Shown: positions 22,241 to 36,794 of the stretch, in pieces
Numbering within the stretch: the first letter of the stretch is position 1
Layout of the letters: the number at the start of each line of letters is the position of its first letter
Assembly (NCBI RefSeq): GCF_010730355.1
Contig: NZ_AP022576.1
Span: 682,001 to 746,000, forward strand
DNA length: 64,000 nucleotides
Source: Mycobacterium florentinum
GTDB taxonomy: Bacteria > Actinomycetota > Actinomycetes > Mycobacteriales > Mycobacteriaceae
Direction of reading: 5' to 3'
Translations under genes and position numbers: made by a program
Notes under the pieces: generated by a model
What the model saw: the letters and a program-made list of their open reading frames with translations, nothing else
The model's database searches: none
Told to the model about the DNA's origin: nothing

Positions 22241-22264
22241 TCCGCAATGCGGAACACTATAGTG
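22241..22264. promoter_or_regulatory. Twin palindromes in the FAD-oxidase/IclR divergent promoter
   Basis: Two perfect palindromes nearly abut: TCCGCA-a-TGCGGA at 22241-22253 and CACTATAGTG at 22255-22264. The second contains a -10-like CACTAT and ends 5 nt before the IclR start codon. They occupy the 65-bp region between the divergent genes and are likely the IclR operator. Confidence 0.65.
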
Positions 22265-22269
22265 GAAGA

Positions 22270-23016
22270 GTGCCGCCCACGGAACCCACTGCGCCCACGA
22301 ATCGCGACGAGGGCATCCAGGTGTTGCGTCGCGCCGCCGCCGCCCTGGACGAGATCGCCGCCGAGCCGGGACGGCTCCGCCTGGTCGACCTCGGCGAGCG
22401 GCTCGGGCTGGCCAAATCGACGGCGCGCCGCCTGCTGGTCGGCCTGGTGGAAGTCGGGTTGGCGAGTGTGGATTCGCACGGCCACTTTTCGCTGGGCGAG
22501 CGCCTGCTGGGTTTTGGCAGTGCCGCGGGAGCGCACGTCTCGGCGATCTTCCGGCCGACGATCGAACGGGTGGCGCGCGCGACCGACGGTGAAACGGTCG
22601 ACCTCTCCGTGCTGCGCGGCCAGCGGATGTGGTTTGTCGACCAGATCGAATCGTCGCACCGGCTGCGCGCGGTCTCGGCCGTCGGTGTCCGATTCCCGCT
22701 GGAGGTGACCGCCAACGGCAAGGCGGCGCTCGCCGCGCTGGACGACGACGCGGCGGAGGCGATGATCTCCCGGTTCAGCGCGCCGGTGGGCGAGCGGTTG
22801 CGCCGCGAGACCGCGGAGATCCGGCGAACCGGGATCGCTTTCGACCGGGGCGAACACACTCCCGGGATTTCGGCGGCCGCGATCGCGCGACGAACCTTGG
22901 GCGACAACGTCATCGCCATCTCGGTGCCGGCACCCACCGAACGCTTCCTGGAAAAGGAGCAGCGCATCATCGCAGCATTGCGCACGGCGACCGACTCACC
23001 GGCGTGGACTCGTTGA
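22270..23016 (+). CDS. IclR family transcriptional regulator (Rv1773c-like)
   Basis: A 248-residue IclR regulator. The winged helix-turn-helix covers about residues 15-80 (LRLVDLGERLGLAKSTARRLL), followed by the IclR effector domain (RATDGETVDLSVLRG, VTANGKAALAAL, RTGIAFDRGEHTPGISAAA). GTG 22270 is chosen because it gives the size of Rv1773c and leaves the palindromes upstream; a GTG/TTG-type start at 22234 would place them inside the gene. It likely controls the divergent FAD oxidase and PhlG-like hydrolase in response to an aromatic or acidic effector. Confidence 0.9.
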   Translation: MPPTEPTAPTNRDEGIQVLRRAAAALDEIAAEPGRLRLVDLGERLGLAKSTARRLLVGLVEVGLASVDSHGHFSLGERLLGFGSAAGAHVSAIFRPTIERVARATDGETVDLSVLRGQRMWFVDQIESSHRLRAVSAVGVRFPLEVTANGKAALAALDDDAAEAMISRFSAPVGERLRRETAEIRRTGIAFDRGEHTPGISAAAIARRTLGDNVIAISVPAPTERFLEKEQRIIAALRTATDSPAWTR

Positions 23017-23251
23017 CGAGGCGCGAAGGGGCGGTGAAAACTCGCCGACGGGCCTCGTTACGGCCGCAGATGTAACGCCGGCTCGATTCTTTTGCGACGG
23101 CGCCGCAAGCCGCGCGACCGCGCCGGCCACTGCGGCTCGAGCGGGAACACGTCGTGCTTCAACGGGTTTGGGTCGGTGGGTTCTTGACGTGGGTTGGCAC
23201 GGCCGTGGTACCCCCCAGGGACCCCGGCCGCGCCAAGTTCGTGATCACTTG
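23017..23251. other. Intergenic region between IclR and ANTAR genes
   Basis: About 235 bp between converging genes. I see no credible coding sequence, no terminator with a clean stem and no repeat. It marks the border between the conserved ESX-5 flank and the accessory block. Confidence 0.35.
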
Positions 23252-23539
23252 TCAATAGCTCAGTGCTGCCGCTCCGCTGAACAGTTGACCCCACTCGTGG
23301 CGCGCAGCCGATTGCGCCTCGCTGAAGCTGGTTGTCTTTTCGCCCTCGCCGGCCAGGTGCACAAGCGCCCATGCCATCGCGAATACCGGAACCTTGTGAC
23401 GCAATGCCGCAGTGTGCAGTTCGTCGAACGCCGTCTCCGAACGACACCGGCGAAGTCCGATGATGATCCCCCGCGCAGTGTCGAGAATGCGGCTGGAGTT
23501 CGGGCCGCACGAAGTGTGTGCGGGAACCCAGTTCGCCAT
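23252..23539 (-). CDS. Stand-alone ANTAR domain protein
   Basis: A 95-residue protein that is little more than an ANTAR RNA-binding domain: LDTARGIIIGLRRCRSETAF followed by ALRHKVPVFAMAWALVHLAGE. No receiver, PAS or GAF domain is present. ATG 23539 is preferred over ATG 23548, because AGGAGGT (23555-23549) touches the latter but lies 9 nt before the former. ANTAR proteins bind paired RNA stem-loops and prevent termination. It sits at the edge of the catabolic block, which makes regulation of that block plausible, but this is inference. Confidence 0.75.
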   Translation of the reverse strand: MANWVPAHTSCGPNSSRILDTARGIIIGLRRCRSETAFDELHTAALRHKVPVFAMAWALVHLAGEGEKTTSFSEAQSAARHEWGQLFSGAAALSY

Positions 23540-23831
23540 GCTCTTCATACCTCCTGTTGCGCCCCAACGAAAATCCGCTACTCCGCGTAGCGAACAAGAA
23601 TCCCAGCGAGAACGCATGACTCGCCATCGTGATTCTCAAAGGCGCACTGTGCCATGATTTGTGGAACGGCGCCGTTATGCCATAGCGCCGTCGACATCGA
23701 TACGTGCTTGTGACCGTGTCGATACCGATTTCGGCACCAATCGGGCTGGGGTGTAACGCGGCTCGCACTTCTGCCGACAATGCCGCGTAAGAGCCAATCG
23801 CAGAACGCTTTTGGCGGCAGCACCGGATACC
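23540..23831. other. Intergenic region with hairpins upstream of the ANTAR gene
   Basis: No gene supported. Two inverted repeats lie here: CGCTAC-tccgc-GTAGCG at 23576-23592, which would fold in the leader of the ANTAR mRNA about 20 nt before its ribosome binding site, and ACGGCGC-N12-GCGCCGT at 23666-23691. Base composition is lower in GC than the neighbouring genes. Confidence 0.45.
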
Positions 23832-25052
23832 CTACAGGATCGAGTTGAGGTCCTTCGCCTTTGCGATGTCGTCCCACTCGACGCCGAGTTCGAGCAAAAT
23901 CTCCTCGGTGTGCTGGCCGTGTTCTGGCGCGCGCGCGGGAAGTGGCGGAGTTTCGTTGAATTGAACCGGCGCAGCAACGATTCGGTATTCCTCGCCGTAA
24001 TCGTCGACGTTTGTCACCACGTAGCCGTTGGGTTCGACTTGGGGATCGTTGAGTGTCTCTCGCGGCGTGGCAAGCGCTCCCCACACTCCCGGTTCGTTTT
24101 CGAGCACCTTCCGCCAGTGCGCGAGGTCATGGCCGGCAAACGTTTTCGCGAAGATATCGGTCGCCGCGGCCGCATTCGCGATCAGGTTGCTCGACGGTAC
24201 GAAGCGCTCGTCGGTGGCTAACTCCGCAAGGCCCATCCGCTCGCAGAAGCCGGCCCAGAATTTGTCGGGTTGCAGGAAGACCAGCTGGATCCACCTGCCG
24301 TCCCTGGTTTTGTAGCGATTCACCAGCGGATTGATGGCCAATCCGGGCGGTGCCCCCGGAATGCCGTCGATATCAAAGAAATCGGCGGCACAGATCGACG
24401 GCGCGATGGACCACATGGCCTGCGCCAGCAGAGAGGAATCGACGATCGTCGGCTCGCCGGTCCGTTCCCGGTGGAACAGCGCCGCGCACACACCGCCGGC
24501 CAGCGTGGCCCCACCCTGCAGGTCACCAAAACCGGGGCCCTGGACGGCGGGCGTATCGGTCCCGAACGGGGTGAGGGTGTAGGCCACCCCGCCGCGGGCC
24601 AGGTAGGTGGCCGCGTCGAAGCCGCCGCGATCGCGGTCCGGGCCGCGAACCCCCAGCCCGGTACCGCGGGCGATGATGATCTTCGGGTTGAAGCCGCGAA
24701 TGTCGTCCACGGTCAGCCGGGCCCGCTCCAGCGCGCCGGGCAGCCAGTTGGTCAGGAACACGTCCGCGGTGGCCAACAGGCGCCCGAACAATGCGCGACC
24801 CGTCTCGGATTTGATGTCGATCGCAATGCTGCGCTTGCCGCGGTTGCCCAGCTCGAGGATGAAGTCCGCATCCGGGCGGGCGGCTTCGCGCGTGAAGCCG
24901 CCGACGACCAGCGCCCGGCCCGGGTCACCGAACGCCACGCCCTCCACCTTGATGACGTCCGCGCCCCAGTCCGCCAGCGCGGCACCGGCCGACGGGACGT
25001 ACGTCCATGACGCCAATTCGACGACCCGCACGCCGTCAAGGACACCTGACAT
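23832..25052 (-). CDS. CaiB/BaiF family CoA-transferase
   Basis: A class III CoA-transferase of 406 residues that would move CoA between acyl-CoA and a free carboxylic acid. Typical segments are LDGVRVVELASWTYVPSAGA near the N-terminus, ADWGADVIKVE, GNRGKRSIAIDIKS and ILELGVEWDDI at the end. The catalytic aspartate is probably in the RGGFDAATYLARGG segment. ATG 25052 is preceded by GAGGGGG. It is divergent from the SDR that opens the plus-strand catabolic operon and shares a 250-bp regulatory region with it, so it very likely activates a substrate or intermediate of that pathway. Confidence 0.9.
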   Translation of the reverse strand: MSGVLDGVRVVELASWTYVPSAGAALADWGADVIKVEGVAFGDPGRALVVGGFTREAARPDADFILELGNRGKRSIAIDIKSETGRALFGRLLATADVFLTNWLPGALERARLTVDDIRGFNPKIIIARGTGLGVRGPDRDRGGFDAATYLARGGVAYTLTPFGTDTPAVQGPGFGDLQGGATLAGGVCAALFHRERTGEPTIVDSSLLAQAMWSIAPSICAADFFDIDGIPGAPPGLAINPLVNRYKTRDGRWIQLVFLQPDKFWAGFCERMGLAELATDERFVPSSNLIANAAAATDIFAKTFAGHDLAHWRKVLENEPGVWGALATPRETLNDPQVEPNGYVVTNVDDYGEEYRIVAAPVQFNETPPLPARAPEHGQHTEEILLELGVEWDDIAKAKDLNSIL

Positions 25053-25301
25053 CGCCAACCCCCTCGGTCCGGATCTGTCCTTGCTATTTTAGGTATTCTA
25101 GTTACTCTAAGGGATATCGATAGCCCGGCTACAGCCACGCGCAGGTTTTCGTGGAAGAGATGCGATGGAGCCGATCGTTGGCCAGATTCACCCCAGCGGC
25201 ACAGGCACTTTCGCTCGCCGGCCAGACCACCGTCGTAACGAGCCCCCAACGCGGCTCCCGCACACACGTACGGCAATAGGCACCCGGACGAAGGACGAGC
25301 G

Positions 25302-26165
25302 ATGGGCAGGGTAACGGGCAAGGTGGCCGTGATCAGCGGCGCCGCGCGGGGTCAGGGACGGTCGCACGCGCGGATGCTGGCCGCCGAGGGCGCCGACATC
25401 ATCGCGGTGGACCTGTGCGCGGATATCGACACGAACGAATACCCACTGGCCCGGCCGGAGGACCTGGACGAGACGGCGCGGCTGGTCGAAAAGGAGGGGC
25501 AGCGCGCCTTCACCGCCATCGCCGACGTTCGCGACCGCGTGGCACTGTCCGCCGCGATCGACGAGGGCGTCGCCGAGCTCGGGCACCTCGACATCGTGGT
25601 CGCCAACGCGGGTATCTGCCCGCTCACCGCGGGTCTGCCACCGAAGGCGTTCGCCGACGCCGTGGACGTGGACCTGGTGGGTGTGCTCAACCTCGTACAC
25701 GCGAGTCTCAAACACCTGCAAGCCGGCGCGTCGATCATCGTGATCGGTTCCAACGCGGCCTTCATGTCGTCGATGAACACCACCGGCATCGACGGCGGCC
25801 CCGGCGGAGCCGGGTATGCTTTCGCGAAACTTGCTGCAGCACACTATGTTAACGACTTCGCTCGGGCGCTGGCCCCGTTTTCCATCCGGATGAACGCGGT
25901 GCATCCCACCAACGTCAATACCGACATGTTGCACAGCCCGCCGATGTACCGGGCGTTCCGACCCGACTTGAAGGAGCCGACCCGCGAAGACGCCGAGCCG
26001 ATCTTCCCGTTCGTCCAGGCGATGCCGATCCCCTACGTCGAGCCCGAAGACATCAGCGAGGCGGTGCTGTTCCTTGCCTCCGACGCCGCACGCTATATCA
26101 CCGGACAGCAGCTACGCGTCGACGGCGGCGGCTTCCTCAAGGTCAAGCCATGGTCGGGCGCGTGA
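25302..26165 (+). CDS. Short-chain dehydrogenase, mycofactocin-coupled type
   Basis: A 287-residue SDR. The cofactor motif GAARGQGRSHA replaces the usual GxxxGIG, and a segment between it and the next strand is longer than in classical SDRs, as in mycofactocin-associated SDRs that hold NAD tightly. NAG is present in VVANAGICP and the active-site pair is YAFAK. A mycofactocin partner is therefore likely, but it is not shown here. It is the first gene of the operon; its TGA overlaps the ATG of E1-alpha (TGATG). It would oxidise an alcohol to a ketone or aldehyde. Confidence 0.88.
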   Translation: MGRVTGKVAVISGAARGQGRSHARMLAAEGADIIAVDLCADIDTNEYPLARPEDLDETARLVEKEGQRAFTAIADVRDRVALSAAIDEGVAELGHLDIVVANAGICPLTAGLPPKAFADAVDVDLVGVLNLVHASLKHLQAGASIIVIGSNAAFMSSMNTTGIDGGPGGAGYAFAKLAAAHYVNDFARALAPFSIRMNAVHPTNVNTDMLHSPPMYRAFRPDLKEPTREDAEPIFPFVQAMPIPYVEPEDISEAVLFLASDAARYITGQQLRVDGGGFLKVKPWSGA

Positions 26166-27148
26166 TGCCAAGCGCCGCAGCAGATGTCGAGCGCAAGCTC
26201 TATGCGCTGATGGTGCTGATGAAGGCGGCCGACGACCGACTGTCCAAGGGCATCGGCACCGGTGAGTTCATGTGTGTGTACTGGCCGTCACGCGGCCAGG
26301 AGGCGATCGCCGCGGCAATGGGTGTCGCGCTGCGACCCTACGACCAGCTGGTGACGACCTACCGCGGACTCCACGATCTGATCGGGAAGGGCGTCCCCCT
26401 CGAGGAAATCTACGGCGAGATGATGGGACGCACGGTCGGCGCCGGCCGCGGCAAAGGCGGCACCATGCACATCGCCAAACCCGAGGTGGGCGTGATGCTT
26501 TCGACCGGAATCGTCGGCGCCGGGCCGCCAGTGGCCGTCGGGCTGGCGATGGCCGCCAAACGTAAGGGGCTCGATCGAGTCACCGTGGTGAGCTTCGGCG
26601 ACGGCGCCACCAACACCGGCTCGTTCCACGAGGCGGCCAACATGGCCGCACTCTGGGATCTGCCGATGGTGTTCGTCTGCCAGAACAACCTGTACGCGGA
26701 GATGACGCCGACCCACGACACCATGAAGATCGAGCGGGTCGCCGACCGGGCCGCCGGATACGGGATGCCGGGCGTCCGGGTCGACGGCAACGACCCGCTG
26801 GCGGTGAAAGACGCGCTCGACGAGGCACTTCGTCGGGCGCGCGACGGTGCGGGCCCCACCTTCATCGAGTGCGTGACATTCCGTTTCCGCGGCCACTATT
26901 TCGGCGACCGGATGCCCTATATCCCCAAGGAACAACTCGAAGCCGCGGTGGCCGCCGACCCGGTGCCGCGCTTTCGCCGGCGTCTTGCCGACGCGGGCAG
27001 CTGCGACGAACACGAGCTCGCGCGCATCGACGACGAGGCCCAGGCCGCCGTGGAATCCGCTTTGAAAGTCGTGATGGGCGCCGATTCCCCGTCGGTCGAC
27101 GAGCTCGACCGTGACGTGTACGCAACTCCGATCAAGTTCCCGGTGTAA
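26165..27148 (+). CDS. TPP-dependent dehydrogenase E1 component, alpha subunit (acetoin/pyruvate dehydrogenase type)
   Basis: A 327-residue E1-alpha subunit. The thiamine diphosphate motif begins with GDGATNTGSFHEAANMAAL and ends with QNN about 30 residues later. GAGRGKGGTMH and the C-terminal FRGHYFGDRMPY are family segments. With E1-beta it would decarboxylate or cleave a 2-oxo acid or acyloin and acylate a lipoyl group. The start overlaps the SDR stop codon by one base. No E2 acyltransferase or E3 gene follows, unlike ordinary complexes. Confidence 0.92.
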   Translation: MPSAAADVERKLYALMVLMKAADDRLSKGIGTGEFMCVYWPSRGQEAIAAAMGVALRPYDQLVTTYRGLHDLIGKGVPLEEIYGEMMGRTVGAGRGKGGTMHIAKPEVGVMLSTGIVGAGPPVAVGLAMAAKRKGLDRVTVVSFGDGATNTGSFHEAANMAALWDLPMVFVCQNNLYAEMTPTHDTMKIERVADRAAGYGMPGVRVDGNDPLAVKDALDEALRRARDGAGPTFIECVTFRFRGHYFGDRMPYIPKEQLEAAVAADPVPRFRRRLADAGSCDEHELARIDDEAQAAVESALKVVMGADSPSVDELDRDVYATPIKFPV

Positions 27149-27152
27149 CGAC

Positions 27153-28151
27153 ATGGACGAAAAAGAGATGACGATGCGCGAGGCGCTGAACCTCGCGCTG
27201 GATCAGGCGCTGGCGGCCGACGATCGAGTGTTCTTGCTGGGTGAGGACATCGCCGATCCGGGCGCATCCGGACCGACGGCGGGGTTGTCGACGAAGTACG
27301 GCCACGACCGGGTGCTGGACACTCCGATCTCGGAGGCCGCGATCGTCGGCGCGGCGATCGGCGCCGCGATCGACGGACTGCTGCCGGTGGCCGAGATCAT
27401 GATCATGGACTTCATCGGCATCGCCGCCGACCAGCTGATCAACAATGCCGCCAAGCTGCGGTTCATGACCGCCGGCCGGACAACCGCGCCGATCACCATC
27501 CGCACCCAGGTGTACGCCGGACTGGCCACCGGTGCCACACATTCGCAGAGCCTGGAGGCATGGTTCATGCACATCCCGGGCATGAAGGTGATCGTGCCGT
27601 CCACCCCGCGCGACGGCAAAGGCCTACTGACGGCCGCGATCTTCGACGAAGACCCATGTCTGTTCGTCGAGACGATCCGGCTGCAAAGCAGGAAGGGGCC
27701 GGTTCCCGTCGACCCCGGATTCTCCATTCCCCTCGGCCAGGCCGATATCAAGCGGCCGGGCACCGACGTGAGTCTGATCAGCTACGGGCGCAGCGTGCAC
27801 GACGCGCTCGCGGCGGCGGCCACGCTGGCCGAACAGGGGGTCAGCGCCGAAGTCGTGGACCTGCGCACCCTGGTGCCGCTGGATGTCGAGACCATCATCG
27901 CGTCGGTACGGCGTACCCGCAGGGCCGTAATCGTGCACGACGCAGTCCAATTCGCCGGCCCCGGAGCGGAGATCGCGGCGATCGTGGGATCGGAGCTGTT
28001 CGGCGAACTCGCCGCACCCGTCGAGCGGGTGGCCGCCCGGTTCGTGCCCAACCCGGCCGCGGCCGCGCTCGAGGCGCAGGTGTACCCGTCACCGGCCCGC
28101 GTCGTCGAGGCGGCGCTGCGTACTCTCGCGAAAGCGAATGCGCATGGCTGA
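27153..28151 (+). CDS. TPP-dependent dehydrogenase E1 component, beta subunit
   Basis: A 332-residue E1-beta (transketolase central and C-terminal domains). It starts MDEKEMTMREALNLALDQAL; FLLGEDIADPGA, the ADQLINNAAKLRFMT helix, and the C-terminal AVIVHDAVQFAGPGAEIAA are conserved. It begins 4 nt after E1-alpha and its end overlaps the lipoyl-domain gene by 8 bp. The partner is certainly E1-alpha; the substrate remains open, with acetoin-type or branched 2-oxo acids as possibilities. Confidence 0.92.
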   Translation: MDEKEMTMREALNLALDQALAADDRVFLLGEDIADPGASGPTAGLSTKYGHDRVLDTPISEAAIVGAAIGAAIDGLLPVAEIMIMDFIGIAADQLINNAAKLRFMTAGRTTAPITIRTQVYAGLATGATHSQSLEAWFMHIPGMKVIVPSTPRDGKGLLTAAIFDEDPCLFVETIRLQSRKGPVPVDPGFSIPLGQADIKRPGTDVSLISYGRSVHDALAAAATLAEQGVSAEVVDLRTLVPLDVETIIASVRRTRRAVIVHDAVQFAGPGAEIAAIVGSELFGELAAPVERVAARFVPNPAAAALEAQVYPSPARVVEAALRTLAKANAHG

Positions 28152-28380
28152 CTTCGTTATTCGAATCCCCCGAGTGTCGGTCGCGGTAGCCGAAGCGGAG
28201 CTGACCGGGCTCCTCGTCGACGCCGGCGAACACGTCGAGGCGGGCACGCCGATCTATGTGATCGCCACCGAGAAGGTGGAACAGGAAATCGAAGCCGGAG
28301 CATCCGGCACCGTGCGGTGGACGGGCCAGGTCGGGACCATCTATGACATCGGCGCCGAAATCGGCATCATCACTTCATAA
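28144..28380 (+). CDS. Free-standing lipoyl-domain protein
   Basis: A 78-residue protein that is only one biotinyl/lipoyl domain: FVIRIPRVSVAVAEAELTGLLVDAGEHVEAG, then IATEKVEQEIEAGASG. K44 in TEKVE takes the place of the lipoylated lysine of the DKA hairpin. No linker, E1/E3-binding domain or catalytic acyltransferase domain is present. It overlaps E1-beta by 8 bp; an in-frame ATG at 28138 is also possible. It must serve as a swinging arm for the E1 pair, delivering the acyl group to an enzyme encoded elsewhere or to a non-canonical acceptor. Confidence 0.88.
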   Translation: MADFVIRIPRVSVAVAEAELTGLLVDAGEHVEAGTPIYVIATEKVEQEIEAGASGTVRWTGQVGTIYDIGAEIGIITS

Positions 28381-28397
28381 CTGGCGAAAGGGCAAAA

Positions 28398-29270
28398 ATG
28401 GACCTCAACGAGACGCGCGAGCGCATCATCTACCAGAAAGATGGTCCGATCGCGAAGATCACCCTGAACTGGCCGGAGAAGGCCAACGCTCAGGACCAGA
28501 AGCTGGCCGAGGAGGTCGACGCCGCCCTGCTGGATGCCGACCGCGACTACGACATCAAGGTTTTGGTGCTCAAGGCCAACGGCAAGGGATTCTGCTCCGG
28601 GCATGCGATCGGCAACAACGCCGTCGACTACCCGTCGTTCGTGGAGAACGCGATGGTAACCGGACACCCGTGGAAGGCGCAGTCGGATCTGTTCGTCAAG
28701 CCAACGCTGAATCTATGGGAGTTCTCCAAACCCACCATCGCGCAGGTGCACGGCTACTGCGTGGGCGGCGGTACGCACATGGGCCTGACCACCGACATCG
28801 TCATCGCGTCGGAAGACGCCTACTTCTCCTATCCGCCGCTACAGGGATTCGGCATGCCGTCAGGTGAATGTTCGATCGAACCTTGGGTTTTCATGAACTG
28901 GCGCCGCGCCGCCTACTACCTGTTCACCGCCGAGGTGATCGACGCCCACAAGGCGCTGGAGGTCGGGCTCGTCAACGAGGTGGTCAAGCGGGAGGACTTG
29001 GACGCCCGCGTGGACGCGATCGCCCGCCACATCGCCCAGGCGCCGTTGACGACGTTGATGCTCACCAAGGCAAATCTCAAGCGGGCTTGGGAGTTGATGG
29101 GCATGCGGGTGCACTGGCAGAGCTCCAACGACCTCGTCGCGCTCGCCTCGATCAGCAAGGACGTGCAGCAGTTGATTCAGACCGTGTTCAAGGACAAGGT
29201 GTTGCCGTCCGAGCACGCCCGGCGCCAGGCCGCGGCCGCCGCCCAGACCGACGGCGCCGCGGCAACGTAG
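28398..29270 (+). CDS. Enoyl-CoA hydratase/isomerase family protein
   Basis: A 290-residue crotonase-fold protein. The oxyanion-hole segments are KGFCSGHAI and HGYCVGGGTHMGLTTDIVIAS. The position of the first catalytic Glu in the second helix shows a tyrosine/serine-rich PPLQGFGMPSGE instead of the usual ExxxG, so the chemistry may differ from simple hydration. The C-terminal LTTLMLTKANLKRAWELMGM is closely matched by the second crotonase gene at 33895. It lies 17 nt after the lipoyl gene with AAAGGG before its ATG. Confidence 0.88.
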   Translation: MDLNETRERIIYQKDGPIAKITLNWPEKANAQDQKLAEEVDAALLDADRDYDIKVLVLKANGKGFCSGHAIGNNAVDYPSFVENAMVTGHPWKAQSDLFVKPTLNLWEFSKPTIAQVHGYCVGGGTHMGLTTDIVIASEDAYFSYPPLQGFGMPSGECSIEPWVFMNWRRAAYYLFTAEVIDAHKALEVGLVNEVVKREDLDARVDAIARHIAQAPLTTLMLTKANLKRAWELMGMRVHWQSSNDLVALASISKDVQQLIQTVFKDKVLPSEHARRQAAAAAQTDGAAAT

Positions 29271-29278
29271 GTCCGCTG

Positions 29279-30811
29279 GTGAACATCGCCGATCACGCGA
29301 TCGCGGTCGCCCAGTCAACGGCTCTGATTGCCGACGGCACCGCGATCTCGTTCGGCGAGCTGTACGAACGAAGCCAACGAGTCGCCGCGGCACTACACGA
29401 TGCGGGGTTGCGCCGCGGGGACGGTGTGGCCCTGGTATTGCCGAACCGCCCGGAGTTCTTCGAAATCACCTGGGGCTGCCAGCTTTCCGGCCTCTACTAC
29501 ACCGCGGTCAACACCCACTTCACCGCCGATGAGGCCGCCTACGTGATCGGCGACTCCGATGCGAAGGCGGTGTTCGTCGACGCGTCGATGCCCGAAATCG
29601 CCTCTCACGTGCGCGATGTCAACGCGGCAGTCGGGGTCCATATCAGTGTCGGCGGCGAACTACCCGGCTGGCGCGGATACGAGGACACCCTGGCGGCGGC
29701 GGGTGCTGCGCCGCCGGTGTCGGACGGATCCGAGATGCTCTACTCCTCGGGGACCACGGGACGACCCAAGGCGGTCCGCCGGCCGCTGCCCGCCGACGGC
29801 AACGGCTCCTGGGCCCAGTCGGTGCTCGAGATGGCGCTGACCCACCGCTACGGCATGAGCCCGTCGAGCGTGTACCTGTCCCCCGCGCCGCTGTACCACG
29901 CGGCCGGGGTGAACTACACCATGGCGGTCAACCGCGTCGGCGCCGCGTCGATCATGATGCGCAAGTTCGACGCGGAGACCGTGCTGAGACTGATCGACAC
30001 CCACCGCGTGACGCACGCCCAATTCGTCCCGACGATGTTCGTGCGCATGCTCAAGCTGCCCGAGGCGGTGCGGCGCAGCTACGACGTCTCCAGCCTGCGC
30101 TGCGTGATCCACGCGGCCGCTCCCTGCCCGGTCGACGTCAAGCACCAGATGATGGACTGGTTCGGGCCGATCATTCACGAATACTATGGCGGCACAGAAG
30201 GATTCGCGGGAACCGTGATCGGTCCCGAGGAGTGGCTCGCCCACCCCGGCTCGGTGGGCATACCGATGGCCCCGGTACACGTCGTCGGCGACGACGGCCA
30301 AGAGCTTCCCATCGGCCAGGCTGGAGAGCTTTACTTCGAAGGTGGACCCGATTTCGAGTACTTCAAGGATCCCGTCAAGACCGCGTCGGTGTACAACGAC
30401 CGCGGTTGGCGCTCCCTGGGGGACATGGGATACGTCGACGAGGACGGGTACATGTACCTGACCGATCGGTCGACGTTCATGATCGTCTCCGGTGGGGTGA
30501 ACATCTACCCGCAGGAGGCGGAGAACCTCCTGATCATGCATCCCAAACTGGTCGATGCCGCGGTCTTCGGCGTTCCCAACGACGAATTCGGCGAAGAGGT
30601 CAAGGCCGTGGTGCAGCCCGTCGCGGGCGTCGCGGCCGGACCCGACTTCGAGGCCGAGCTGATCGCGTACTGCCGGGCCCACCTGGCCGGGTACAAGTGC
30701 CCGCGCACAGTCGAATTCGACCCGGAATTGCCTCGCGATCCGAACGGGAAGCTCTACAAGAGGCGCATCCGCGAGCGTTACTGGCAGGGGCGCGCATCAC
30801 GGATCGTGTGA
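29279..30811 (+). CDS. Acyl-CoA ligase (AMP-binding family)
   Basis: A 510-residue ANL-family ligase that activates a carboxylic acid to its CoA thioester through an acyl-adenylate. The phosphate-binding loop is YSSGTTGRPKAV, the adenine motif YYGGTEG, and the hinge region YLTDRSTFMIVSGGVNIYPQE; the C-terminal lysine is in DPNGKLYKRR. GTG 29279 (NIADHAIAVAQST) lies 8 nt after the preceding stop. It is central to the operon and very probably makes the CoA ester used by the crotonases. Confidence 0.92.
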   Translation: MNIADHAIAVAQSTALIADGTAISFGELYERSQRVAAALHDAGLRRGDGVALVLPNRPEFFEITWGCQLSGLYYTAVNTHFTADEAAYVIGDSDAKAVFVDASMPEIASHVRDVNAAVGVHISVGGELPGWRGYEDTLAAAGAAPPVSDGSEMLYSSGTTGRPKAVRRPLPADGNGSWAQSVLEMALTHRYGMSPSSVYLSPAPLYHAAGVNYTMAVNRVGAASIMMRKFDAETVLRLIDTHRVTHAQFVPTMFVRMLKLPEAVRRSYDVSSLRCVIHAAAPCPVDVKHQMMDWFGPIIHEYYGGTEGFAGTVIGPEEWLAHPGSVGIPMAPVHVVGDDGQELPIGQAGELYFEGGPDFEYFKDPVKTASVYNDRGWRSLGDMGYVDEDGYMYLTDRSTFMIVSGGVNIYPQEAENLLIMHPKLVDAAVFGVPNDEFGEEVKAVVQPVAGVAAGPDFEAELIAYCRAHLAGYKCPRTVEFDPELPRDPNGKLYKRRIRERYWQGRASRIV

Positions 30812-30833
30812 CGCTGACACAAGGGATGACGAG

Positions 30834-32201
30834 ATGGCAGTAGAGACAGGTTCGAGACGAGCCCACGTGGACTGGACGGCGTTGCCGGTGCCGTGGGCGG
30901 TGCAGGCCGCCGACCGAATTCCCAAGCAGCGCTATTACGACCCGGACTTCTACGCGCTCGAGGCCGAGATGTTGTGGCCGCGGGTGTGGCAGATGGCCTG
31001 CCGGCTCGAGGAGATACCCAACCCCGGCGACTACGTGGAGTACGAGATTCTCGACGAGTCGATCATCGTGGTGCGCGTCGACGGCGAGAATGTCCGGGCT
31101 TATCACAACGCCTGCCGTCACCGCGGGGTAAAGCTGGTGGAAGGCAACGGAAGCCGGCGCACCTTCGTCTGCCCGTTCCACGGCTGGTGCTGGGGCATCG
31201 ACGGGCGCAATACGTTCGTGCTGCGGCCCGAGGCCTTCGCCGCGGACAACATGCGCCCGGAAGACCTCGAACTCGTCTCGGTCCGCTGTGAGCTCTGGGG
31301 TGGCTGCGCGTGGATCAACCTCGACGCCGCGGCGCCGCGGCTGCGCGAGTGCATGGAACCGTTCGCGTCGATCTACGACGCCTGGCACGTGGAGACGCTG
31401 CGCACCGAATGGTGGCAGTCCTGCCGGCTTCCGGTGAACTGGAAACTCGCGACGGCGGCGTTCATGGAGGGCTACCACGTTCCGCAGACGCACCCGCAGC
31501 TACTGCCCTCGAGCATGCCCACCACATCCGCGAAGCCCGGCCTGGCGCAGACCAACCTGTATTTCATGCGCACGCTCGGCGAAGGCATGGCGGGCATGAC
31601 GCATGAGAACGACGTCCGTATCGCCGAGGGCTTGCAGAACATCGAGCTGCCGGCCGATCCGGCCGAGGCTATGGCTACCTGGCGCAGGACCCTCAACGAC
31701 GCGATCGTCAGCTGGCATCGTGCCCGGGGCTGCGACATTCCCGACTTGAATGACCTTGCGCGGCGCGGGATCACCGAGGCGATCAATTTCGCCTTCCCGC
31801 ATTACTTCGTGCTGCCCCAATACAGCAGCGCCTCGTCCTATCGGATCCGGCCACTGGGTCCGGAGGAGACGCTGTTCGAGATCTGGTCGCTCACTCGCAT
31901 CCCGCCGGATCAGGTGACGGGCAAGCCCACACCGCCCGAACCGATGGCGCCCGACGACCCGCGCTGGCCGCCGATTCCCGCCCAGGACTTCTCCAATCTG
32001 CCGCGACAGCAAAAAGGACTCCACTCCAAGGGTTTTGAATTCATGCGACTCTCTTACCAGATCGAAGGACTGATCTCGAACTTCGAGCGGGTCATCGACG
32101 GGTTCCTGGCCGGCCTGAGCTACGACGCGCTGGTGCCCGCGATCCAGAAGACCAATACCACCATCGACGTGCCGATCGCCGACCTCGGGTTGGGCTCATG
32201 A
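30834..32201 (+). CDS. Rieske non-haem iron oxygenase, alpha subunit
   Basis: A 455-residue ring-hydroxylating oxygenase. The Rieske 2Fe-2S cluster is bound by C94-x-H96 (ACRHRGVKL) and C113-x2-H116 (VCPFHGWCWG). The mononuclear iron site is in FMEGYHVPQTHPQ (two histidines four apart), followed by a later Asp/Glu. It would hydroxylate a ring of the substrate. No ferredoxin or reductase gene is adjacent, so electrons must come from elsewhere. Its TGA overlaps the ATG of the KstD-like gene. Confidence 0.92.
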   Translation: MAVETGSRRAHVDWTALPVPWAVQAADRIPKQRYYDPDFYALEAEMLWPRVWQMACRLEEIPNPGDYVEYEILDESIIVVRVDGENVRAYHNACRHRGVKLVEGNGSRRTFVCPFHGWCWGIDGRNTFVLRPEAFAADNMRPEDLELVSVRCELWGGCAWINLDAAAPRLRECMEPFASIYDAWHVETLRTEWWQSCRLPVNWKLATAAFMEGYHVPQTHPQLLPSSMPTTSAKPGLAQTNLYFMRTLGEGMAGMTHENDVRIAEGLQNIELPADPAEAMATWRRTLNDAIVSWHRARGCDIPDLNDLARRGITEAINFAFPHYFVLPQYSSASSYRIRPLGPEETLFEIWSLTRIPPDQVTGKPTPPEPMAPDDPRWPPIPAQDFSNLPRQQKGLHSKGFEFMRLSYQIEGLISNFERVIDGFLAGLSYDALVPAIQKTNTTIDVPIADLGLGS

Positions 32202-33898
32202 CCACTGCGTGGGACCGCTCGGTGGACCTGCTGATCGCGGGCAGCGGTGGCGGCGGCATGGTGGCGGGGCTGGCCGCGCTGGACAGTGGGCTTGAGCCCC
32301 TGATCGTCGAGAAGCAGGCCCTGGTCGGCGGATCGACCGGGCTGTCCGGCGGCATCGTCTGGCTGCCCAACAACCCGCTGATGCGTGCCGACGGCATCGC
32401 CGACTCGCACGAAGACGGCCTGGCCTATCTGGGCGACGTGGTCGGCGATATCGGTGCGGCGTCCTCGGCAGCACGGCGGGAGATGTTCCTCACCGCGGGC
32501 TACGAGATGATCAACTTCCTTATCCGCAAGGGTGTTCGGCTGATCCGCTGCGCCGGCTGGAGCGACTACTACCCGAATCACAAGGGCGGCAACGAGTCCG
32601 GCCGGGCCATCGAGGGAATCCCGTTCGACGCGGCCGAACTCGGCAGCTGGCATGACAAGGTGCAGCCCCCGCTGGCAAAGAACTACGGGTACGTGGTGCT
32701 GACCAACGAGCTGCGCTCGGTCCAGTACTTCAACCGGGCGCCGCGCGCATTCGCGGTCGCCACCAAGGTGTTCCTGCGGACCGCCGCGGCGCGAGCACGC
32801 CGGGCCCAGATCCTCACCAACGGCGCCTCACTGATCGCGCAGATGCTCAAGGCGCTGATCGACCTCAGCGGAAATCAACCCCCGTTGTGGACGAATACCG
32901 CGATGGAGGACCTGATCGTCGAGGACGGCCGCGTCGTCGGCGCGCGGGTCAATCGGGACGGCGTCGCGCTGAACATCGAGGCGCGCAAGGGAGTTCTGCT
33001 GGCCGCCGGCGGCTTCGGCCACAACAAGGAGATGCGCCGCCGCTACAGCGGCGACCAGCCCAACGAGGGACAGTGGTCGATCGCCAACGCCGGCGACACC
33101 GGCGAGGTGCTGGAGACGGCCATGCGACTGGGCGCCCAAACCGATCTACTCGACGAAGCATGGTGGCTGCCTTCGGTTTTCATCGCCAACGGCGGTGCCG
33201 TCGCCGCGTCGCTGGGCTCTGGACGACAACGGCCCGGCGCCATCTACGTCGACTCGACCGGGCGGCGGTTCTGCAACGAGTCGAACTCCTACGTCGAGGT
33301 CGGCAAGGCGATGTACGCCAACAAGGCGGTGCCCTGCTGGATGATCTTCGACGACGGATACGTACGCCGATACGTCACCAGCGCCAATCCGCTGAAACGC
33401 AATCAGCACCTGCCCCCCGAGCTGATCGAAAAGGGCGCGGTCAAACGCGGCGCCACGATCGCCGACCTGGCCCGCCAGATCGACCTGCCCGCCGACGAGC
33501 TGTCGCACACCATCGAACGGTTCAACCGGTTTTCGGCCAAGGGCCTGGATCCCGACTTCGGGCGCGGCCAGTCGGCCTACAACGACTGCCTCGGCGATCC
33601 GGGGTATCGGCCCAACGCCGCGATCGGCCCGCTGGACCGCGCGCCGTACTACGCGACCAGGGTGCTCCCGTCCGATGTTGGAACCTGCGGGGGCGTGATC
33701 ACCAACGAACACGCCCAGGTGCTCGATCAGCAGGACCGGGTGATCGACGGTCTGTACGCGACCGGCAACACCACCGCGACGGTGATGGGCCGCACGTATC
33801 CGGGCGCCGGCGCGAGCATCGCCAGCTCGATGGTGTTCGGTTACGTCGCCGCCCGCCATGCGGCCGGGCGCAAGATCGCCGGCCAGATGAGCCGCTAA
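32198..33898 (+). CDS. FAD-dependent 3-ketosteroid dehydrogenase-like flavoprotein
   Basis: A 566-residue member of the fumarate reductase/KstD flavoprotein family. FAD binding is shown by GSGGGGMVAGLAAL and GGSTGLSGGIVWLPNN, both typical of 3-ketosteroid-delta1-dehydrogenases. Near the C-terminus TYPGAGASIASSMVFG has the Tyr and Gly that act in KstD catalysis. It would introduce a C=C bond next to a ketone. It overlaps the oxygenase gene by 4 bp and its stop overlaps the convergent crotonase stop. A steroid or other cyclic ketone is the likely substrate class. Confidence 0.9.
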   Translation: MTTAWDRSVDLLIAGSGGGGMVAGLAALDSGLEPLIVEKQALVGGSTGLSGGIVWLPNNPLMRADGIADSHEDGLAYLGDVVGDIGAASSAARREMFLTAGYEMINFLIRKGVRLIRCAGWSDYYPNHKGGNESGRAIEGIPFDAAELGSWHDKVQPPLAKNYGYVVLTNELRSVQYFNRAPRAFAVATKVFLRTAAARARRAQILTNGASLIAQMLKALIDLSGNQPPLWTNTAMEDLIVEDGRVVGARVNRDGVALNIEARKGVLLAAGGFGHNKEMRRRYSGDQPNEGQWSIANAGDTGEVLETAMRLGAQTDLLDEAWWLPSVFIANGGAVAASLGSGRQRPGAIYVDSTGRRFCNESNSYVEVGKAMYANKAVPCWMIFDDGYVRRYVTSANPLKRNQHLPPELIEKGAVKRGATIADLARQIDLPADELSHTIERFNRFSAKGLDPDFGRGQSAYNDCLGDPGYRPNAAIGPLDRAPYYATRVLPSDVGTCGGVITNEHAQVLDQQDRVIDGLYATGNTTATVMGRTYPGAGASIASSMVFGYVAARHAAGRKIAGQMSR

Positions 33899-34728
33899 GA
33901 ATCTTCGCGGTCGACGAAATCGCGTGGCTTCATGCCCGATTGCATGAGTTCGGCCCGCCGAGCCTGAACATCGGTGGCGGCGCCGACCATATTGGTCAGG
34001 ATGTGGCTGACCTGAAGGTGCACGCGCATACCCATCAATTCCCAGGCACGCTTGACGTTGTTCTTGACCGCCATCAGTGTGGTCAGCGGGATTTGGGCGA
34101 TCTTGCGGGCCATCTCCTCGACCGTGTCCTCGAGGTCTTCGCGCGGCACCACCCGATTGAGCAGCCCCCAGTCGAGGGCCTGCTGGGCGGACAGCGTCGG
34201 CGCCAGCAACAACCAGTCCATGGTGCGATGCCAATTCATCAGCAGCCACGGCTCAATCATGGTGTGCCCGCCCGGTTCTCCGAGGCTTTGGGCAAGCGGC
34301 ATCTGGAAATACGCATCGTCGGACGCCACGCAGAAGTCGGTCAACAAGCCGAGATAGATCCCGCCCCCCATGCAATAGCCGTGGATCTGCGAGATCGTCG
34401 GCTTGGGAAATTCCCACAGGTACAGCGTCGGCCACAGAAACAGGTCGGCGGTGCCTTTGTACAGGTCCTCGAACGTGTTTCCGAAATCCGGATAAGGGTT
34501 TTCGTCGGGCCCCCAGCGCGCCACATGGCCGCCGCAGAAGCCCTTACCGTTTGCCTTGAGGATGACGACCTTGATCTCTCTGTCGCGGTCGGCCTCGTGC
34601 AGACATTCGTCGACTTCCGTGACGAGGACGGCATCCTTGGTATTGGCCTTGTCGACCCGATTCAAAATGATCCGCGCAATCGGCGGTTCGCGTTCATAGA
34701 TGACCGCGTCGAGCTCGCGCCGCTCCAT
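33895..34728 (-). CDS. Enoyl-CoA hydratase/isomerase family protein
   Basis: A 277-residue crotonase-fold protein with KGFCGGHVARWG and HGYCMGGGIYLGLLTDFCVAS as oxyanion-hole segments. It is a close paralogue of 28398-29270, both sharing the LTTLM.KN.KRAWELMGMRVH tail. ATG 34728 is preferred because its N-terminus then lines up with the paralogue; ATG 34758 adds 10 residues and lies before the GGGAGG ribosome binding site. It is convergent with the KstD-like gene and divergent from the nitrile hydratase-type genes. It probably handles a related CoA intermediate. Confidence 0.87.
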   Translation of the reverse strand: MERRELDAVIYEREPPIARIILNRVDKANTKDAVLVTEVDECLHEADRDREIKVVILKANGKGFCGGHVARWGPDENPYPDFGNTFEDLYKGTADLFLWPTLYLWEFPKPTISQIHGYCMGGGIYLGLLTDFCVASDDAYFQMPLAQSLGEPGGHTMIEPWLLMNWHRTMDWLLLAPTLSAQQALDWGLLNRVVPREDLEDTVEEMARKIAQIPLTTLMAVKNNVKRAWELMGMRVHLQVSHILTNMVGAATDVQARRAELMQSGMKPRDFVDREDS

Positions 34729-34854
34729 TATCGGGACATTACCCTCCCGGCAACTCATTTAGCGGTTGCGTGATCTTGCGGTGAGGAGTGAGGTGTATTG
34801 AGTGCGCACCTGGCTGCGCCACGGCCGACATTGCGACGACGAGTGGAGCTGGTT

Positions 34855-35706
34855 ATGGCGACCCCTGCGGACCGCGCAGCCCAGCTGGACCTGGTGGCCA
34901 GGCTCAAATCCGCCTACCCGGAACTTCCGGACGCGCCGACGCCGGATCTCATCGATCACGACCGATTCGCCGCATACGCGAAGACCCCGCACGACGTCGG
35001 CGGGGAACCCGACGCGCCGATCAAGTACGAGAACAAGCAGTACGAGATCTGGGAAGAGAACACCTACATCATGTGTGAGGTGCTCGGCTGGCGGGGCATC
35101 TGGCTGTCGGAGGAACGGCGCCGGATGGGCAATGTCGACCTCGGCCGCGCCATCTATCTTGGTCTGCCCTACTACGTGCGCTGGTTGCTCGCCGTGGTGC
35201 GCGTCCTCGTCGAGAAGCACCACATCGGGGTGAGCGAGCTGGCCGAGCGCATGGTCGAGGTCAAGGCCCGGTATGAGGGCGGGCTGCAGGGTAAGCCTCT
35301 GGAGGCCAAGCCGAAATTCGAAGGCGACCCGGCCACGGTCAAACGCAACGAACACCACATCCACGCCGTCGGCAAGGGCGATCCGCAGGTTTTTGCCGGG
35401 CAGGCCGGCGAGCCGAAGTTCCGGGTCGGCGACAAGGTCGTCGTCAAGGACCTGCCCATCCTGCTCTATACCCGCACCCAGGAATACGTCCGCGGCGCCC
35501 AAGGTGAGATCGCCGTCGTCACCTACGAAAGCCCCGCCGCCGAAGACGAGACCTGGGCCGGCCCCGATCAAAAACCCGAGTGGTTCTACATCGTTCGGTT
35601 CAACCTGTCCGAACTCTGGCACGGTTACACCGGTCCCACCAACGACACGCTGCAGACCGAGATTCCCCAACGGTGGCTCGAAGCGGTCGAAAGGACCTCA
35701 GCATGA
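34855..35706 (+). CDS. Nitrile hydratase/thiocyanate hydrolase beta-type subunit
   Basis: A 283-residue protein resembling NHase beta. The N-terminal half has the helical pattern ending YYVRWLLAVVRVLVEKHHIGVSELAERM; the C-terminal half is the SH3-like barrel (FRVGDKVVVKDLPILLYTRTQEYVRGAQGEI) with RFNLSELWHGYTGP. Thiocyanate hydrolase encodes these halves as two proteins; here they are fused. ATG 34855 is preceded by GGAG with 6-nt spacing. ATGA overlap couples it to the metal-site subunit. Confidence 0.88.
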   Translation: MATPADRAAQLDLVARLKSAYPELPDAPTPDLIDHDRFAAYAKTPHDVGGEPDAPIKYENKQYEIWEENTYIMCEVLGWRGIWLSEERRRMGNVDLGRAIYLGLPYYVRWLLAVVRVLVEKHHIGVSELAERMVEVKARYEGGLQGKPLEAKPKFEGDPATVKRNEHHIHAVGKGDPQVFAGQAGEPKFRVGDKVVVKDLPILLYTRTQEYVRGAQGEIAVVTYESPAAEDETWAGPDQKPEWFYIVRFNLSELWHGYTGPTNDTLQTEIPQRWLEAVERTSA

Positions 35707-36407
35707 CCGATCACGACCACGATCACGATCGCACCGCAGCGCCGATGGTGGACGAGATCACCGATTTCGAGGTCCTCGAGATAGCCCTTCGCGAATTGTG
35801 CATCGAGAAAGGCATTTTCACCGCCGAGGAACATCGCCGCATGACCGAATACGCCGAGCAGATCGGTCCGACTCCGGCGGCCCACCTGGTGGCCCGGGCC
35901 TGGCTCGACCCCGAATTCAAGAAGCTGGTGATTTCGGATCCGCTTGCCGCCAGTAAGGAAGTCGGCGTCGACTGGCTGCACCCCACGGGTTTCGGCACGC
36001 CGAGTGACTTCACGGCCTTTCACGTCTTGGTGGACACGCCGACCCTGCACCACGTCATCGTGTGCACGCTCTGTTCCTGCTACCCGCGCCCGATTCTGGG
36101 CAATTCGCCCGAGTGGTACCGCACGCCCAACTTCCGCCGTCGCATCGTGCGCTGGCCGCGCCAGGTGCTCGCCGAGTTCGGCCTCTACCTACCCGAAGAG
36201 GTCGAGATTCGGGTCGAGGACTCGAATCAGAAGCACCGATTCATGGTGATGCCCGTACGCCCCGACGGAACCGACGGCTGGACCGAAGACCAGCTGGCCG
36301 AAATCGTCACCCGCGACTGCCTGATCGGTGTCGCCCTGCCCAAGGCCGGCGTCACCACGAACGCGATCACCGAAACCCGGCCCGCCATCCATCCGGTTGC
36401 CGACTGA
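35703..36407 (+). CDS. Cobalt-type nitrile hydratase alpha / thiocyanate hydrolase gamma-type subunit
   Basis: A 234-residue metal-binding subunit. The motif V-C121-T-L-C124-S-C126 is the cobalt variety (Thr; iron enzymes have Ser) and supplies three sulphurs, two usually oxidised, and two backbone amides to Co(III). YPRPILGNSPEWYRTP and RRRIVRWPRQVL are family segments. The N-terminus MTDHDHDHDR is histidine/aspartate-rich and could bind metal. It would hydrate a nitrile to an amide or hydrolyse thiocyanate; sequence alone cannot decide. Confidence 0.92.
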   Translation: MTDHDHDHDRTAAPMVDEITDFEVLEIALRELCIEKGIFTAEEHRRMTEYAEQIGPTPAAHLVARAWLDPEFKKLVISDPLAASKEVGVDWLHPTGFGTPSDFTAFHVLVDTPTLHHVIVCTLCSCYPRPILGNSPEWYRTPNFRRRIVRWPRQVLAEFGLYLPEEVEIRVEDSNQKHRFMVMPVRPDGTDGWTEDQLAEIVTRDCLIGVALPKAGVTTNAITETRPAIHPVAD

Positions 36408-36422
36408 CATGGAGGCCAACAC

Positions 36423-36794
36423 GTGAGCGCTTCCGAAAGCTTGGACCCGGCCAAGACCTCGACGATCGCGTCGCTGACGAAAATCGTTGAGCGAAACCAG
36501 GTCTGGAGCCGAATGGCGGCCAAATACGGAGTCGACAACCCGGTGCCGCCGTGGCAGACCAGCCTGGACGGGATCTGCGACGCCCTCGATCAAAGCGCTT
36601 GCGGCCCAGAGACACTCGGCTTCCTCGAGCGGCGCAACGAGGAGGACACCCTGTCGGCGACGGTGTATTCCGAGCTGCCGTACCCGGAAAACCGGTTGGT
36701 TGCACTGGCGCATTCGCTCTTGGCGCATGGTGTGATCGACGAGGCCGAACTCGAAGAGCGCATGGCGGCCGTGCGGGCCCGGCTCGAATCCTGA
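36423..36794 (+). CDS. NHase-beta N-domain-like accessory protein
   Basis: A 123-residue protein starting at GTG 36423 (GGAGG 7 nt upstream). Its C-terminal half, YPENRLVALAHSLLAHGVIDEAELEERMAAV, resembles the helical N-terminal part of the NHase beta subunit and the NHase/thiocyanate hydrolase activator proteins. It contains a single Cys. It follows the metal subunit by 15 nt, so it is likely a third subunit or the cobalt-insertion activator, which is otherwise absent. Family placement is moderate. Confidence 0.7.
   Translation: MSASESLDPAKTSTIASLTKIVERNQVWSRMAAKYGVDNPVPPWQTSLDGICDALDQSACGPETLGFLERRNEEDTLSATVYSELPYPENRLVALAHSLLAHGVIDEAELEERMAAVRARLES

What the first reader, a model, noticed from the sequence alone, without database searches (positions are those of the whole stretch)
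25302..33898. Catabolic operon with TPP-dependent E1 subunits and a bare lipoyl domain but no E2 or E3
Eight genes overlap or lie within 22 nt: SDR of the mycofactocin type, E1-alpha, E1-beta, a 78-residue lipoyl domain, crotonase, acyl-CoA ligase, Rieske oxygenase and KstD-like flavoprotein. Standard 2-oxo-acid dehydrogenases have an E2 in which the lipoyl domain is fused to an acyltransferase. Here the arm is free, like glycine-cleavage H protein, and would pass an acyl group to an unknown partner. The gene mix suggests breakdown of a cyclic keto acid or steroid-like acid. The facing crotonase and the divergent CoA-transferase complete a candidate pathway that I do not recognise as described.
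Basis: partly seen in the sequence, partly recalled or inferred. Interest (0 to 1): 0.82.

Follow-up and report, generated by a model that had tools for sequence, protein, structure and literature searches.

The report
Detached lipoyl arm in catabolic operon
A mycobacterium carries a conserved breakdown operon in which a thiamine-dependent enzyme pair sits beside a free-standing lipoyl 'swinging arm' that is normally welded to a larger enzyme; similar layouts recur in other bacteria, and we did not find this one described.

Summary
In detail: eight co-directional genes (25302-33898) overlap or lie within 22 nt, including E1alpha, E1beta and a 78-residue lipoyl protein, with no E2 or E3. This one-contig genome has two E2 catalytic domains, DlaT and an E2-E1 fusion (OdhA/KGD type). 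The layout is selected: close lipoyl orthologues in 28 of 88 same-genus genomes, the lipoyl-lysine motif in 88 of 88 called copies, dN/dS 0.02-0.22. Of 75 free-lipoyl loci labelled, from mycobacteria, other Actinobacteria and two plasmids, 72 have E1 nearby and 42 also a Rieske oxygenase and a KstD-like enzyme; only 4 have a stand-alone E2 catalytic domain and 2 an E3. So the partner is not wholly unknown: some relatives encode a detached E2 core, and the three actinobacterial ones group with DlaT-type cores. DlaT plus a shared E3 in trans is therefore the likeliest partner here, a mirror image of OdhA/KGD, which borrows lipoyl groups in trans. Lipoylation, co-expression, product and substrate are untested; my guess is a cyclic ketone cut as a ketol. 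New variant of a known kind.

The parts
23832..25058 (-). CaiB-type CoA-transferase, divergent from the operon
   Evidence: CaiB-type NCBIfam models, below their cut-offs; next to the cluster in 81 of 89 labelled loci
25302..26165 (+). SDR, mycofactocin-coupled type
   Evidence: TIGR03971 332.7 bits over cut-off 300; MftC in genome
26150..27148 (+). E1alpha subunit (ThDP-dependent dehydrogenase)
   Evidence: PF00676; ThDP motif GDG...NN at residues 150-180; alignment to 1ni4_A
27153..28151 (+). E1beta subunit
   Evidence: ORF from 27111; aligned with solved E1beta chains; ISE at 59-61, THSQ at 129-132
28144..28380 (+). free-standing lipoyl protein, 78 aa, lipoyl lysine K44
   Evidence: model of pLDDT 89.7 with lipoyl/biotinyl fold and K44 between strands 36-41 and 46-50
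28398..29270 (+). crotonase-type protein (ECH1)
   Evidence: PF00378
29279..30811 (+). acyl-CoA ligase, FadD4-like (below that model's cut-off)
30834..32201 (+). Rieske oxygenase alpha-type protein, no beta subunit gene next to it
   Evidence: CRH, CPFH and EGYHVPQTH motifs
32198..33898 (+). KstD-like flavoprotein
   Evidence: NF009478 878.5 bits over cut-off 789; aligned with solved KstD chains
33895..34758 (-). facing crotonase-type protein (ECH2)
   Evidence: present in 80 of 89 labelled loci

Best explanation
The operon encodes a ThDP-dependent acyl-CoA-forming dehydrogenase with a detached arm. E1alpha-beta cleaves a C-C bond next to a carbonyl of a catabolic intermediate and reductively acylates the free lipoyl protein at K44. 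The loaded arm then meets an E2 catalytic core given in trans, most likely DlaT (the PDH E2), and a shared E3, giving acyl-CoA and NADH. It sits in a cluster that prepares and finishes a cyclic substrate (SDR, KstD-like, Rieske oxygenase, ligase, crotonases, CoA-transferase). Shown here: gene content, conservation, intact E1 motifs, conserved lipoyl-lysine motif, no E2/E3 in the operon, separate E2 cores in a few relatives and their kinship with DlaT-type cores. Inferred: lipoylation, DlaT and E3 as partners, acyl-CoA as product. Guessed: the substrate, and that E1 cuts a ketol made by the KstD-like and Rieske enzymes.
For: E1 motifs kept: GDG...NN in 82 of 85 E1alpha, THSQ in 84 of 84 E1beta. 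TEK[VA]E in 88 of 88 called lipoyl copies, 76 distinct. Lipoyl dN/dS 0.036-0.101. Genome offers two E2 cores, DlaT and an E2-E1 fusion, and LipB. Split E2 (free arm plus separate catalytic domain) in L069, L070, L161, L174. Actinobacterial split cores group with DlaT-type cores, 95/81, apart from 12 other E2 cores. Precedent read in passages: OdhA/KGD depends on lipoyl-lysine given in trans and acts with the PDH complex (PMC10415282).
Against: [quoted passage not shown] tuberculosis (quoted in PMC10415282), so lipoylation here must be shown. Nothing shows that DlaT accepts this arm or a bulky acyl group. OdhA/KGD also falls, on a long branch, into the DlaT group of the E2 tree, whose inner order is open, and the Paraburkholderia split core lies outside it on a long branch with weak support. 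Bearers do not have more E2 genes than non-bearers, but many have some beyond DlaT, so other partners are possible there. Some related E1 pairs have no lipoyl gene seen nearby (L170, L175). Another E1-like protein (78.2 bits, 4469511-4470182) is in the genome and was not identified.
Confidence: 0.55

Rival explanations
1. Hydrolytic or other unloading: E1 acylates the free arm, but the thioester is hydrolysed or passed on without any E2 (for example by the crotonase encoded next to it), the free acid is activated by the FadD of the operon, and E3 only re-oxidises the arm.
For: No E2 in 71 of 75 free-lipoyl loci. A crotonase gene follows the lipoyl gene directly in the window type and in the L058-L066 type; a ligase is in the operon.
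Against: Relatives with a dedicated E2 core show that CoA transfer is at least sometimes the fate of the arm. In several other families a Rieske gene and not a crotonase follows the lipoyl gene.
Confidence: 0.18
2. The E1 pair works mainly without the arm, as a non-oxidative ThDP lyase or decarboxylase, and the lipoyl protein is accessory.
For: Related E1 pairs without a lipoyl gene seen nearby (L170 Sphingobium, L175 Rhodococcus). A ThDP-dependent non-oxidative decarboxylase acts on a ring acid in riboflavin breakdown (LumK/LumL, PMC12746152, passages), though it is a different, smaller protein pair.
Against: Strong purifying selection on the lipoyl gene and a constant lysine motif; E1 present in 72 of 75 free-lipoyl loci; the E1beta His aligned with that of solved lipoyl-using E1s is kept (its role recalled).
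Confidence: 0.12
3. A dedicated acyltransferase of another fold, unlinked in the genome, unloads the arm (as the alpha/beta-hydrolase-type part of acetoin dehydrogenase E2 may do; that architecture is recalled).
For: Best NCBIfam match of the arm is the acetoin dehydrogenase E2 model; in the Streptomyces plasmid locus a patatin-like hydrolase gene follows the lipoyl gene.
Against: No alpha/beta-hydrolase gene was identified in the window operon; genome-wide candidates were not searched.
Confidence: 0.12

Closest known systems
2-oxo acid dehydrogenase and acetoin dehydrogenase complexes (E1alpha/E1beta, E2, E3)
   Same: E1alpha, E1beta and an E2-type lipoyl domain, with aligned active-site motifs
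   Different: Lipoyl domain is its own gene; no E2 catalytic domain and no E3 in the operon; subunits score under the PDH model cut-offs
Split-E2 modules in relatives (L069, L070, L161, L174)
   Same: E1alpha, E1beta and a free lipoyl protein in a row; L161 also has KstD-like, Rieske and ferredoxin genes
   Different: They have a stand-alone E2 catalytic domain (about 246-257 aa in L069, L161, L174; called at 233 aa in L070); L069 and L070 also an E3
Actinobacterial OdhA/KGD with PDH
   Same: Component sharing with the PDH complex is established there (PMC10415282, passages)
   Different: There the E1-E2 fusion borrows the lipoyl arm; here the arm is supplied and the E2 core would be borrowed
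GcvH and LbpA lipoate-binding proteins
   Same: Free-standing lipoyl proteins (PMC6067878, passages)
   Different: They belong to glycine cleavage or sulfur oxidation; this one lies beside E1 and matches E2 lipoyl models
Steroid KstD/KshA pair
   Same: KstD-type dehydrogenase and a Rieske oxygenase side by side
   Different: Rieske protein only remotely like KshA; the other steroid genes were not looked for

Membership tests
2-oxo acid dehydrogenase complex | E1alpha/E1beta with ThDP motif and active-site Glu/His | tested here: met
   (roles of residues recalled)
2-oxo acid dehydrogenase complex | lipoyl domain fused to an E2 acyltransferase domain | tested here: not met
   78-aa frame with its own stop; no PF00198 near it
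2-oxo acid dehydrogenase complex | E3 encoded with the complex or available in the cell | tested here: inconclusive
   none in the operon; eight PF02852 proteins elsewhere, not identified one by one
2-oxo acid dehydrogenase complex | oxidative decarboxylation of a 2-oxo acid to acyl-CoA | not testable with these tools
   needs enzyme assays
Acetoin dehydrogenase | cleavage of an acyloin | not testable with these tools
   closest lipoyl model only; no tree with proven acetoin E1s was made
Lipoylated protein | conserved lipoyl lysine in a hairpin of the lipoyl fold | tested here: met
   TEK[VA]E in 88 of 88; model and PDB matches, which include biotinyl domains too
Lipoylated protein | lipoylation itself | not testable with these tools
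   LipB is in the genome; mass spectrometry needed
Mycofactocin-dependent SDR | TIGR03971 over cut-off and mycofactocin genes in the genome | tested here: met
3-ketosteroid Delta1-dehydrogenase (KstD) | family model and catalytic Tyr/Gly positions | tested here: met
   NF009478 over cut-off; YY124-125, Y365, Y534, G538 by alignment and motif (roles recalled)
3-ketosteroid Delta1-dehydrogenase (KstD) | activity on 3-ketosteroids | not testable with these tools
   enzyme assay needed
GcvH/LbpA | glycine-cleavage or sulfur-oxidation context and GcvH-type sequence | tested here: not met
   matches only Biotin_lipoyl in Pfam and E2-type models in NCBIfam; no such neighbours labelled

The most novel reading that the evidence does not exclude
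A conserved oxidative ring-opening module: the KstD-like enzyme turns a cyclic ketone into an enone, the Rieske oxygenase makes it an alpha-ketol, and E1 cuts the ring at the ketol, as acetoin dehydrogenase cuts acetoin, loading the opened acyl chain on a diffusible lipoyl carrier that the housekeeping PDH core unloads to CoA. This would be an alternative to Baeyer-Villiger or dioxygenase ring opening and would make a lipoyl protein a soluble acyl carrier.
Probability: 0.2. Interest if true: 0.8.

Novelty: new variant of a known kind. Interest (0 to 1): 0.55.

Why it matters
Textbook 2-oxo acid dehydrogenases tie the lipoyl arm to the E2 core. Here the arm is a separate protein kept under selection beside E1. 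A profile of ten such arms matches 2983 short proteins at E <= 1e-5 in a large protein collection (120 listed; fragments of longer E2s are not excluded), and many of the listed ones are named 'E2 component', which hides that no acyltransferase is present. If the arm is lipoylated, these mycobacteria have a lipoylated carrier beyond the PDH E2, and the PDH core would serve a catabolic pathway. It makes acyl transfer by an untethered arm testable, and it points to an undescribed pathway with a Rieske/KstD-like/E1 core in several actinobacterial families.

Tried and rejected
An E2 dedicated to this operon elsewhere in the genome: none besides DlaT and the E2-E1 fusion. Link between the cluster and extra E2 genes: none seen, 1-6 PF00198 matches in 28 bearers (mean 3.7) against 2-9 in 28 same-genus genomes without the window-type lipoyl protein (mean 3.9); six bearers have exactly two. 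Lipoyl protein as a decayed E2: rejected, constant length and motif, low dN/dS. Biotin carrier: rejected by motif only; the fold does not tell them apart. GcvH type: rejected. Steroid pathway by KshA kinship: not supported. The phloretin-hydrolase/FAD-oxidase/IclR genes (20043-23016) and the thiocyanate-hydrolase-like genes are linked in only a part of the 89 labelled loci (19, 28, 27 and 25-26), so they were left out.

Short frames of E2 matches were followed up: in G660 the lipoyl and catalytic parts lie at the ends of two contigs; in G623 they are adjacent in different frames, a frameshift or a natural split, not resolved. Lipoyl hits of 78-84.2 bits, some in short frames, were not inspected one by one.

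Rows left out: L159 is biotin-type, not a relative; L163, L166 and L167 proved to hold the lipoyl domain in, or next to, ordinary E2/E3 genes and are not in the count of 75; L170, L171, L172 and L175 have no free lipoyl gene that I saw and are not in it either. Alignment A2 held one mis-stranded row (L054) and was replaced by A3.

Literature: ten full-text searches gave no description of this operon; only 20 of 22 and 20 of 50 papers were listed, and I saw listings and starts of abstracts there. Passages only were read of PMC10415282, PMC6067878, PMC12746152 and PMC7176365.
Full report
What is there. The window lies in a 6.22-Mb one-contig genome. Its genus is Mycobacterium by its relatives: the named loci are mycobacterial, and E1beta is nearest to M. 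triplex (94%). The eight genes of the finding are as described, with two details amended: the ligase is called from 29279, since its mechanical ORF runs back into the crotonase, and E1beta from 27153. The facing crotonase and divergent CaiB-type gene are there. dN/dS is 0.017 to 0.220 for the eight genes against L105, L133, L102 and L053.

The arm. The lipoyl gene starts over the E1beta stop and ends in its own stop. In the loci printed, L159 apart, the frame ends within about ten residues of the end of the domain. TEK[VA]E is in 88 of 88 copies that were labelled lipoyl by 60% identity or more, 76 of them distinct; some genomes are in that set twice, since L033-L057 and L096-L158 overlap. In 11 diverse free lipoyl proteins P9, G28, Y38, K44, G55, Y67 and G70 are invariant. 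A predicted model (14 sequences, mean pLDDT 89.7) has the flattened-barrel fold of lipoyl and biotinyl domains (best PDB matches TM 0.7-0.9, both kinds among them), with K44 between strands 36-41 and 46-50.

E1 looks intact. The ThDP motif GDG...NN is at 150-180 of E1alpha and found in 82 of 85 loci; L034, L143 and L158 miss it, L034 because its E1alpha match is broken in two, the others not examined. E1beta has THSQ in 84 of 84 loci (67 HSQS, 17 with T or N in the last place). A looser pattern for the ISE glutamate matched 84 of 84 but says little. Both align with solved E1 chains. What these residues do is recalled.

No E2 or E3 in the operon. The genome has two PF00198 matches: one at 96765-97448 in a 620-residue frame with two lipoyl domains, DlaT by architecture, and one in a 1274-residue frame that also holds an E1 domain, OdhA/KGD by architecture. 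PF00364 gives nine matches, not all identified. PF02852 gives eight. A weaker E1-like match lies at 4469511-4470182. LipB lies about 2 kb from DlaT. MftC is present.

Distribution. A close lipoyl orthologue (75-100%) is in 28 of 88 same-genus genomes, the own one counted, of 148 genomes searched. Of 89 labelled loci 81-85 have CaiB, SDR, E1alpha, E1beta, FadD, Rieske and KstD, and 80 ECH2 (contig ends cut some). A fuller form (for instance L053, L134, L145, L147, L154) has two acyl-CoA dehydrogenases, a zinc alcohol dehydrogenase, a P450, a Rieske ferredoxin and two PF04909 amidohydrolases, and the Rieske-KstD-ECH2-CaiB block on the other side (L134 and L154 show parts of it). In 394 class-level genomes, 32 lipoyl hits of 91 bits or more in 24 genomes stand apart from the rest, which begin at 84.2 bits. 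The 32 proved free-standing where I labelled them; the lower ones were not inspected one by one.

Context. I labelled 75 free-lipoyl loci, the window included: 72 have E1, 53 E1 and a Rieske oxygenase, 44 E1 and a KstD-like gene, 42 all three. A stand-alone E2 core is in 4 (L069, L070, L161, L174), an E3 in 2 (L069, L070); no weaker E2 or E3 match appeared at E 1e-8. Of the 30 window-type mycobacterial loci none has either. L057, L169 and L200 lack E1. Several stretches are cut by contig ends, so presences are lower bounds, and these are loci, not independent genomes. Other contexts: E1alpha-beta as one protein with luciferase-like, thiolase and crotonase genes (L058-L066); E1 with acyl-CoA dehydrogenase, thiolase and OB-fold genes, and in five loci an RPE65-type gene (L068, L072, L160, L168, L177). 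L173, a Streptomyces plasmid, has CoA-transferase, crotonase, amidohydrolase, Rieske, ferredoxin, KstD-like, E1 and lipoyl genes and no E2 annotated. L174, a Paraburkholderia plasmid, has E1, a lipoyl protein and a separate E2 protein.

Who unloads the arm. In the E1beta tree (55 rows) the window type and nine rows of family f104 form one clade (100/100). Its sister, on a weak branch (82/41), holds L161, L069, L070, which have a split E2, and L071, L182, which have none; L174 sits far away. So the separate E2 core was gained or lost more than once. In the E2 tree (28 rows) L161, L069 and L070 fall in one group with nine cores that I took for DlaT by rank and frame, two plasmid E2s and, on a long branch, OdhA/KGD (95/81; inner order open), apart from 12 other E2 cores; the L174 core is outside on a long branch. 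With the L161 core as query in 26 genomes, the bearers without a split E2 gave a DlaT-like best match (52-66%) and at most one weaker match; two of these best matches were in short frames and are explained in part by contig ends or a frame change. So a DlaT-like core is what some relatives use for such arms, and DlaT is what this genome offers. PMC10415282 (passages) states that OdhA/KGD depends on lipoyl-lysine in trans, that PDH and ODH form a mixed complex, and that actinobacterial E2p is a minimal trimer; borrowing from PDH is thus known there, in mirror image. It also quotes E2p as the only lipoylated protein reported in M. tuberculosis, which warns that lipoylation must be shown.

What it breaks down. 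Unknown. KstD active-site positions are kept. The Rieske protein is nearest, among solved chains, to carnitine monooxygenase, and has EGYH where that has ECYH. I saw no extradiol dioxygenase or aminotransferase among the genes identified, but many neighbours were not identified. The order enone, ketol, E1 cleavage is the most economical reading that I found for the recurring Rieske/KstD-like/E1 set; it is an idea, not a result.

Literature. Ten full-text searches found no account of this operon or of E2-type free lipoyl proteins beside E1. The library lacks most subscription journals.

Noticed in passing
window 34843-36794 (+): Nitrile-hydratase-like beta (34843-35706) and alpha (35703-36407) genes, the alpha one over the cut-off of the thiocyanate hydrolase gamma model (389 bits, cut-off 291), then a 123-aa protein without a Pfam match; next to the cluster in about a quarter of 89 loci.
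   Followed up: partly
window 20043-23016: Phloretin/diacetylphloroglucinol-hydrolase-like gene, FAD_binding_4 oxidase gene and divergent IclR regulator, kept together in a part of the mycobacterial loci; may be a pathway of its own.
   Followed up: partly
window 23058-23823 (-): Three short overlapping coding-like pieces between the IclR and CaiB genes that look like remnants of a gene; similar pieces match in several relatives.
   Followed up: no
window 6223-11912 (-): FtsK/SpoIIIE-type ATPase (1390 aa) beside an EccB-type protein, parts of a type VII secretion locus.
   Followed up: no
window 57456-63199 (+): P450, SDR and an 1170-aa protein of AMP-binding, PP-binding and NAD_binding_4 domains, the layout of a carboxylic acid reductase.
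   Followed up: no
L058-L066: Second mycobacterial type of free-lipoyl locus with E1alpha and E1beta fused in one protein of 650-677 aa, beside luciferase-like, thiolase, MaoC and crotonase genes; in L058 a crotonase fused to a nitronate-monooxygenase-like domain.
   Followed up: partly
L068, L072, L160, L168, L177: Third mycobacterial type: E1 pair, ligase, two acyl-CoA dehydrogenases, OB-fold and thiolase genes, free lipoyl protein and an RPE65-type carotenoid-oxygenase-like gene.
   Followed up: partly
L161 3669-5335: Rieske ferredoxin and a NuoF-like protein (Complex1_51K, NADH_4Fe-4S) beside the Rieske oxygenase, perhaps an unusual electron supply; a NuoF-like and a Rieske-ferredoxin gene are also in L071.
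   Followed up: no
L171 5988-9708: Rhodococcus plasmid pWB1: one-protein E1 and a 564-aa protein annotated as muconolactone isomerase family that holds an E2 core, beside sugar-isomerase-type genes.
   Followed up: no
L222 1917-3057: DlaT-like lipoyl and catalytic parts adjacent in different frames in G623: frameshift or a natural split of the housekeeping E2.
   Followed up: partly
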